Origin: Prevotella sp.
Lineage (GTDB): Bacteria; Bacteroidota; Bacteroidia; Bacteroidales; Bacteroidaceae
NCBI GenBank assembly: GCA_016285075.1
Contig: JAEEQB010000013.1
Span: 24,142 to 88,141 of the forward strand
DNA: 64,000 nt
Reading direction: 5' to 3'
Shown here in pieces: positions 43,334 to 43,899 of the stretch (position 1 is the first letter of the stretch; the number at the start of each line of letters is the position of its first letter). The notes below the pieces were generated by a model that worked only from the letters and a program-made list of their open reading frames with translations, made no database searches and was not told the DNA's origin. The translations under genes were made by a program, and so were the position numbers.

Positions 43334-43899
43334 TATATACCATTAACTTTTAATGGTAAAACAAGTTGTTTTACTTTGATAATGCTGGGTTATTCGATAA
43401 AAAGGTATATGTTTACGATAGTAAAACAAGTTGTTTTACTTTAAGAGAAAGCGCTGATTCTGTAGCAAAAGTCGTTCATTGCTTGAAGGTGCAGCATAGA
43501 ATGGCTGAAGTGATCATTACCTAAGGTAACGGGAGCCGTTAGCTAAGGTAACGTGCTGCATTACTTTAGGTAACGTGAGCCGTTGCTACTGGACGTGCAG
43601 AGTGAAAAATGTTTCTTCATTTCCCGTAATTGTGCAAGCGTCACTTGCACAAATGGGAAGTCTGGATATTCTTTAGGTTGCGGGTTTTACTCGTTGGCCT
43701 TGTGCGTTGCGCTCACAGCCCTTGTGCGTTGCGCTCATTGGCCTTCTGATCGCTGCTCGTTGCCTTAACGCGTAGCATTCGTTGCTTGAAGGAGTTAAAT
43801 AGAGCGACTTTCATGCCAACTGACCTACGCTTTGAGTTTAGTGGCGGTAAAGTGGGAGTTTAGTGCCAGTAAACTCCGAGTTTAGTGGCGGTAAACTCA
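43334..43899. repeat. Intergenic block of several 22-bp-period arrays and palindromes
   Basis: GTAAAACAAGTTGTTTTACTTT at 43356 and 43421; TAAGGTAAC units at 43522, 43544, 43566; CCTTGTGCG units at 43698, 43720, 43742, 43763; GAGTTTAG units at 43834, 43856, 43878. Confidence 0.85.

What the first reader, a model, noticed from the sequence alone, without database searches (positions are those of the whole stretch)
43334..43899. Intergenic block made of several unrelated arrays that all have a 22-bp period
In about 570 bp upstream of proB: (a) GTAAAACAAGTTGTTTTACTTT palindromes at 43356 and 43421; (b) TAAGGTAACGGGAGCCGTTAGC-type units at 43522, 43544, 43566; (c) CCTTGTGCGTTGCGCTCAnnGG-type units at 43698, 43720, 43742, 43763; (d) GAGTTTAGTGGCGGTAAACTCC-type units at 43834, 43856, 43878. 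Sequences differ but the period is 22 each time (21 once), as at 32239 and 46332. A common process that fixes length, not sequence, seems to be at work.
Basis: seen in the sequence. Interest (0 to 1): 0.85.

Follow-up and report, generated by a model that had tools for sequence, protein, structure and literature searches.

The report
Intergenic arrays with a 22-bp pitch
Gaps between genes in Prevotella are seeded with many unrelated short DNA arrays whose repeats are all exactly 22 bases apart, probably gene-less remnants of small mobile elements whose DNA-copying protein needs evenly spaced docking sites.

Summary
In this rumen Prevotella genome intergenic DNA shows a sharp lag-22 peak (58 exact runs, 11 at lag 21, 1-3 at most other nearby lags), with harmonics at 44 and 66 and nothing at 33. 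About 80 related species show it with other sequences. Fourteen loci from other Bacteroidales genera show none. Arrays fall into many unrelated families, each dispersed over several loci.

In the window the block is a mosaic. Base 43227 starts an ~87-bp terminal inverted repeat. In two relatives that repeat encloses one gene (2464/2465-bp elements) for a BT4734-VapE primase-helicase; in others it encloses gene-less 388-466-bp copies. Palindrome pairs of two unrelated sequences keep a 49-nt spacer in 21 of 22 loci although spacer sequences have diverged. Upstream of full-length BT4734-VapE genes across Bacteroidales, locus-specific 22-bp-pitch arrays occur (13 of 47; mean of other lags 1.7).

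Best reading: iteron-like binding arrays of primase-helicase elements, left as gene-less copies. Pitch is set by protein geometry; sequence diverges. Protein binding and origin function are inferred, and proximity to VapE genes inside Prevotella is not above background. Closest known: plasmid iterons and the P. gingivalis BrickBuilt MITE.

The parts
43227..43313 (+). copy of the ~87-bp terminal inverted repeat (AAAGGGTGACACGCTGACACAATGCCGATG...GGGTGACACAAGGGTGACACA) of a BT4734-VapE element; the opposite end is missing here
43356..43442 (.). array (a): two TAAAACAAGTTGTTTTA palindromes, 65 bp apart (66 at most other places)
43510..43587 (.). array (b): GTTACCTAAGGTAAC-type palindromic core, about 3.5 units, pitch 22; same family at C19, C89, C82, C65, C87, C88
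43620..43659 (.). hairpin TTTCCCGTAATTGTGCAAG..CTTGCACAAATGGGAA, within a segment absent from the C19 copy of the mosaic
43688..43750 (.). array (c): CCTTGTGCGTTGCGCTCA-type units, 2.5 copies, pitch 22; the stretch 43685-43796 is 99% identical to C19
43829..43904 (.). array (d): GAGTTTAGTGGCGGTAAACTCC, 3 units, pitch 22; dispersed family; a similar unit lies inside the G150 gene-less element
44026..44799 (+). downstream gene proB (glutamate 5-kinase; named from its sequence), host context only
32309..32373 (.). further 22-bp array (CAGATTATCTCAATGACTCGTT type)
46322..46408 (.). further 22-bp array (GTTACCCGGCACCTTTCTCCCG type), in a ~400-bp repeat shared with two other loci (86%)

Best explanation
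The arrays are cis-acting, iteron-like binding arrays of small mobile elements whose only recognised gene is a BT4734-VapE protein (archaeo-eukaryotic-type primase plus VapE/SF3-like helicase, with a C-terminal segment that looks like a winged helix). Most copies in Prevotella intergenic DNA are gene-less, often broken or mosaic derivatives. Successive initiator protomers (the VapE protein or a partner) would sit two helical turns apart on one face of the DNA, in about 3-6 slots at 0, 22, 44, 66 bp, so the pitch is fixed by protein geometry while the recognised sequence drifts in each lineage. Shown: pitch, dispersal in families, terminal repeats around the gene and around gene-less copies, constant 49-nt spacer, pitch-22 arrays upstream of BT4734-VapE genes outside Prevotella. 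Inferred: which protein binds, that the array serves as origin or mobilisation site, and that all families belong to such elements.
For: Lag-22 peak in intergenic DNA only. Many unrelated unit families, each at several loci. Window block 43227-43313 = terminal repeat that flanks a 687-aa BT4734-VapE gene in G066 and G156 (elements 2465 and 2464 bp, 84% identical in DNA, with different neighbours) and encloses gene-less 388-466-bp copies in other genomes and in this one (L118). Palindrome pairs: 49-nt spacer in all 13 CTCGAG-type loci and 8 of 9 TAAAACAA-type loci, spacers only 41-46% identical (median) while distances to the terminal repeat vary 152-193 bp; in 17 of 22 the spacer's best self-match is at lag 21-22. 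Direct lag-22 arrays in the 500 bp upstream of long BT4734-VapE genes: 13 of 47 against a mean of 1.7 at 16 other lags, 0 of 19 for short BT4734 ORFs; palindrome pairs concentrate at 22/44/66; e.g. four slots in B. finegoldii. Array-bearing segments are absent from collinear gene junctions of relatives. Nearest solved relative by sequence is hexameric 7pds, PriRep1 'similar to D. nodosus vapE'. Literature: BT4734 is an AEP primase family and VirE/VapE a predicted replicative helicase (PMC5862659); plasmid iterons are often 22 bp, 2-7 per origin, cooperativity lost by half-turn displacement (PMC4980987); a theta plasmid with 11-bp repeats plus a 22-bp iteron x4.5 (PMC7117683).
Against: Inside Prevotella, arrays near VapE genes are not clearly denser than in other long intergenic regions (0.69-0.98 against 0.44-0.51 per kb), and flank homology near VapE genes is not distinctive (5/14 against 85/332). 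About 70% of long BT4734-VapE genes have no detected array upstream, and part of that excess comes from 8 best-hit plasmid/phage loci examined first. C57 and C59 share an array family although their VapE proteins are only 25% identical. Only about 30% of arrays have a significantly palindromic unit. No structure or binding data; the AlphaFold model is poor (pLDDT 54).
Confidence: 0.5

Rival explanations
1. Operator arrays: the repeats are cooperative operators for a transcription regulator of the BT4734-VapE gene (or of any adjacent gene) and have nothing to do with replication; gene-less copies are relics.
For: Outside Prevotella the arrays lie 45-390 bp upstream of the gene. Palindromic sites at a two-turn pitch fit cooperative repressors.
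Against: Spacing is kept in gene-less elements, and arrays rarely lie within 100 bp of start codons in this genome and are commonest between convergent genes.
Confidence: 0.2
2. Transposase-end arrays: the repeats are binding sites of a DDE or tyrosine recombinase at element ends, as in Mu or Tn7, and VapE is cargo.
For: Long terminal inverted repeats and gene-less copies look like a transposon and its MITEs.
Against: The 2.46-kb elements hold no recombinase, only BT4734-VapE; the palindrome pair lies in the middle of the gene-less copies.
Confidence: 0.12
3. Neutral minisatellites: a lineage-specific slippage or staggered-nick repair process produces 22-bp tandem duplications of arbitrary intergenic sequence.
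For: Very sharp period with unrelated sequences; many 2-3 copy arrays.
Against: Same families at many loci, longer shared elements, constant 49-nt spacers between non-adjacent palindromes, and association with one gene family outside the genus.
Confidence: 0.1
4. Structured RNA or bidirectional terminators: units act as RNA hairpins at 3' ends of transcripts.
For: Enriched between convergent genes; the GAGTTAACTC arrays end in AAAAA/TTTTT.
Against: Only about 30% of units are significantly palindromic; an exact 65/66-bp spacing is not needed by independent hairpins.
Confidence: 0.08

Closest known systems
Plasmid iteron origins (R6K, pPS10, pUCL287-type theta plasmids; PMC4980987, PMC7117683)
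   Same: 2-7 direct repeats, often 22 bp, beside a replication-protein gene; pUCL287-type origins also carry 11-bp repeats; cooperativity depends on helical phase
   Different: Here chromosomal, dispersed, mostly gene-less, dozens of unrelated sequences in one genome, beside a primase-helicase rather than a Rep_3-type protein; origin function untested
BrickBuilt MITE of Porphyromonas gingivalis (PMC4596501)
   Same: Intergenic, dispersed, tandem repeats of similar period inside a MITE-like element in Bacteroidales
   Different: One 23-nt sequence family, up to 22.8 copies, IS5-type terminal repeats of ~12 bp; here many sequence families, pitch 22, usually 3-4 units, one class with ~87-bp terminal repeats linked to BT4734-VapE
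BT4734-like AEP primases and VapE/VirE helicases of mobile elements; PriRep1 (PDB 7pds)
   Same: Protein family membership (Pfam PF08800, PF05272 above cut-off; sequence match to 7pds)
   Different: Known relatives sit on phages, plasmids and satellites with other genes; here the gene is alone between terminal inverted repeats

Membership tests
BT4734-VapE primase-helicase family | PF08800 and PF05272 domains above the curated cut-offs | tested here: met
   (49.3 and 111.6 bits against 22.4 and 25)
Iteron replication origin | several direct repeats of constant pitch beside a replication-protein gene | tested here: met
   (13 of 47 long BT4734-VapE genes); not shown for every family in the window
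Iteron replication origin | Rep binding and replication from the array | not testable with these tools
   needs DNA-binding and replication assays
MITE (gene-less derivative of an autonomous element) | same terminal inverted repeats as a gene-bearing element | tested here: met
   GGGTGACAC class only:
MITE (gene-less derivative of an autonomous element) | window copy intact with both terminal repeats | tested here: not met
   only one terminal repeat found in the window block
BrickBuilt | 23-nt unit and ~12-bp IS5-like terminal repeats | tested here: not met
   pitch 22; terminal repeat ~87 bp, different sequence
Mu/Tn7-type transposon ends | DDE transposase encoded by the element | tested here: not met
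   one gene only, BT4734-VapE
CRISPR array | repeats separated by unique spacers of regular length | tested here: not met
   units are contiguous tandem repeats

The most novel reading that the evidence does not exclude
A new kind of mobile element that is moved or copied by a primase-helicase alone, without a transposase or integrase, in which a geometric code (binding sites at 22-bp pitch, four slots over 66 bp) is conserved while the site sequence turns over; it has filled Prevotella intergenic DNA with gene-less copies.
Probability: 0.25. Interest if true: 0.88.

Novelty: new variant of a known kind. Interest (0 to 1): 0.72.

Why it matters
It shows a rule of spacing without sequence across dozens of unrelated repeat families and links it to one protein family, so the question of what fixes minisatellite period in Bacteroidales becomes testable by one binding assay. 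If the elements move without a transposase, it adds a mode of mobility to bacterial genomes and explains a noticeable part of Prevotella intergenic DNA.

Tried and rejected
Helical phasing alone: lag 33 should then be enriched as well and is not. General palindromicity: only 23 of 76 arrays at p<0.05. Core-versus-linker heterogeneity within single arrays: too little power at 3 units, significant mainly in long arrays. Local enrichment of arrays at VapE genes inside Prevotella: not significant after correction for intergenic length or against control genes. Terminal inverted repeats around the other VapE genes of this genome: none found. Systematic search for gene-bearing and gene-deleted pairs: mostly hairpin-repeat noise. 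Structure prediction of VapE: poor model, no significant fold match. Close relatives of the element in IMG/VR viral contigs: none. First look at other Bacteroidales at a strict threshold found no arrays, including near BT4734 genes; a laxer threshold upstream of full-length genes found them. Laying the whole genome in the Python box and sampling the wider phylum were not possible.

Full report
Observation. The genome is a 4.33-Mb draft of a rumen Prevotella; the window is G000:C76:24142-88141. In 100 kb of its intergenic DNA, exact self-matches of 10 bp or more peak at lag 22 (58), with 44 (38) and 66 (21), against 11 at 21, 0 at 33 and typically 1-3 elsewhere; coding DNA shows only multiples of three. 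Loci of about 80 related species, mostly Prevotella, show the same peak with other sequences (32 at lag 22). Fourteen 12-20-kb loci from other Bacteroidales genera, 29 kb of intergenic DNA, show none, where about 13 would be expected.

Anatomy. Roughly 80-100 arrays in the half of the genome sampled fall into many families that do not resemble one another (GAGTTAACTC, GTTACCTAAGGTAAC, GAGTTTACCGCCACTAAACTC, TTCAAGCAAGAG, AGTATCATACTAAAGG, GGGTATAGGCGTTCAATCG and others); the larger families recur at 5-17 loci, usually with about three units. They lie in longer dispersed, mosaic repeats of up to about 600 bp, rarely within 100 bp of a start codon in this genome, and are densest between convergent genes. 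About 30% of units are significantly palindromic. In relatives, array-bearing segments of about 90-1200 bp sit where collinear species have gene junctions of 0-50 bp.

The element behind the window block. Bases 43227-43313 match a repeat that occurs as inverted pairs in related genomes. In G150, G172 and G197 the pairs enclose gene-less 388-466-bp elements; in G066 and G156 they enclose 2465- and 2464-bp elements with one 687-aa gene. That gene is BT4734-like_N (PF08800) plus VapE-like (PF05272); the literature places these as an AEP primase family and a predicted replicative helicase of mobile elements (PMC5862659), and the closest solved sequence is PriRep1, 7pds. The two 2.46-kb elements are 84% identical in DNA with different neighbours, and the gene next to the G156 element lies on another contig in G066, so the unit has moved. 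This genome holds one intact gene-less copy (L118, about 3302-3729); the window copy has lost one end and been rebuilt with other modules, including a segment with a hairpin that is absent from the C19 copy.

Spacing. Every element of this class that was examined carries two AATTCTCTCGAGAATT-type palindromes with a 49-nt spacer (13 of 13 loci of this palindrome type), and the unrelated TAAAACAAsTTGTTTTA pair keeps the same 49 nt in 8 of 9 (48 in the window). Spacer sequences have a median identity of 41-46% (29% when shuffled), and distances from the pair to the terminal repeats vary (152-193 bp). In 17 of 22 spacers the best internal self-match is at lag 21 or 22. The pattern is therefore slots at about 0, 22, 44 and 66 bp, filled with different sequences.

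Link to the gene. Inside Prevotella, proximity of arrays to VapE genes is not convincing once intergenic length is taken into account. Outside it, where background is low, arrays with 22-bp pitch and locus-specific sequence lie upstream of full-length BT4734-VapE genes: B. finegoldii TCACGGCCGTGG/CCACGGCTGTGA/TCACGGATGTGA/CCACGGCCGTGA; Parabacteroides AGTTTCyCyTAGrGAAAC x6; others. Over 47 long genes, 13 have a lag-22 array in 500 bp upstream, against a mean of 1.7 at 16 other lags; 19 short BT4734 ORFs have none. Palindrome pairs concentrate at 22, 44 and 66 bp. Caveat: 7 of the 13 come from eight best-hit loci that were examined first; the later, unselected set gives 6 of 39.

Mechanism proposed. 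Iteron-like arrays bound by the element's initiator, one protomer every two turns. Plasmid iterons are frequently 22 bp, number 2-7, and lose cooperativity when moved by half a turn (PMC4980987); a theta plasmid combines 11-bp repeats with a 22-bp iteron x4.5 (PMC7117683), and 11-bp repeats also appear beside several VapE genes here, in small numbers. The C-terminal 70 residues of VapE are among the best-predicted parts of an otherwise poor model and look like a winged helix (inference). Binding, origin activity and mobilisation are not shown. Two facts fit poorly: two VapE proteins that are 25% identical share an array family, and most long BT4734-VapE genes have no detected upstream array.

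Known relatives and novelty. P. gingivalis has 22-, 23- and 41-nt tandem repeats and the BrickBuilt MITE (PMC4596501), but that is a single sequence family with other ends. Eight literature searches found no description of a genus-wide 22-bp pitch or of BT4734-VapE elements with terminal repeats; the library lacks most subscription papers. I file it as a new variant of a known kind.

Noticed in passing
window 43946-44008: Sequence just upstream of proB (palindrome AAGCCCAAATATATTTGGCTCTT followed by a TTTTTTCGTAACTTTGC promoter-like motif) recurs in dozens of genomes of the genus, apparently a dispersed terminator-plus-promoter module.
   Followed up: no
window 35593-35728, 17766-17820, 39609-39639: Heptamer repeats (TTATCAT, ATCATTT, TCATTTA) and a 46-bp tandem repeat x3; 7-bp periodicity is a second, separate repeat habit of this genome.
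   Followed up: no
L164 14685-17464 (G000:C8): Small element with a tyrosine recombinase and two excisionase-like proteins; similar flanking sequence without these genes at L135 12345-12971 and L165 3723-4405.
   Followed up: partly
L118, L121, L131, L027, L168, L249 (e.g. L131 8458-8558): Dispersed hairpin repeat with the core GGGGACAGGTTTTT, resembling repeats linked elsewhere to REP-associated transposases (recalled, untested).
   Followed up: no
window 40788-40882: 33-bp tandem repeat inside the C-terminal coding part of a gene at 40546-42072 (IQKTIQKDPETIQKAIQK).
   Followed up: no
L249 9732-9854 (G000:C59): AT-rich stretch flanked by inverted TGCGACCG repeats starting right at the VapE stop codon, shaped like a satellite replication origin.
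   Followed up: partly
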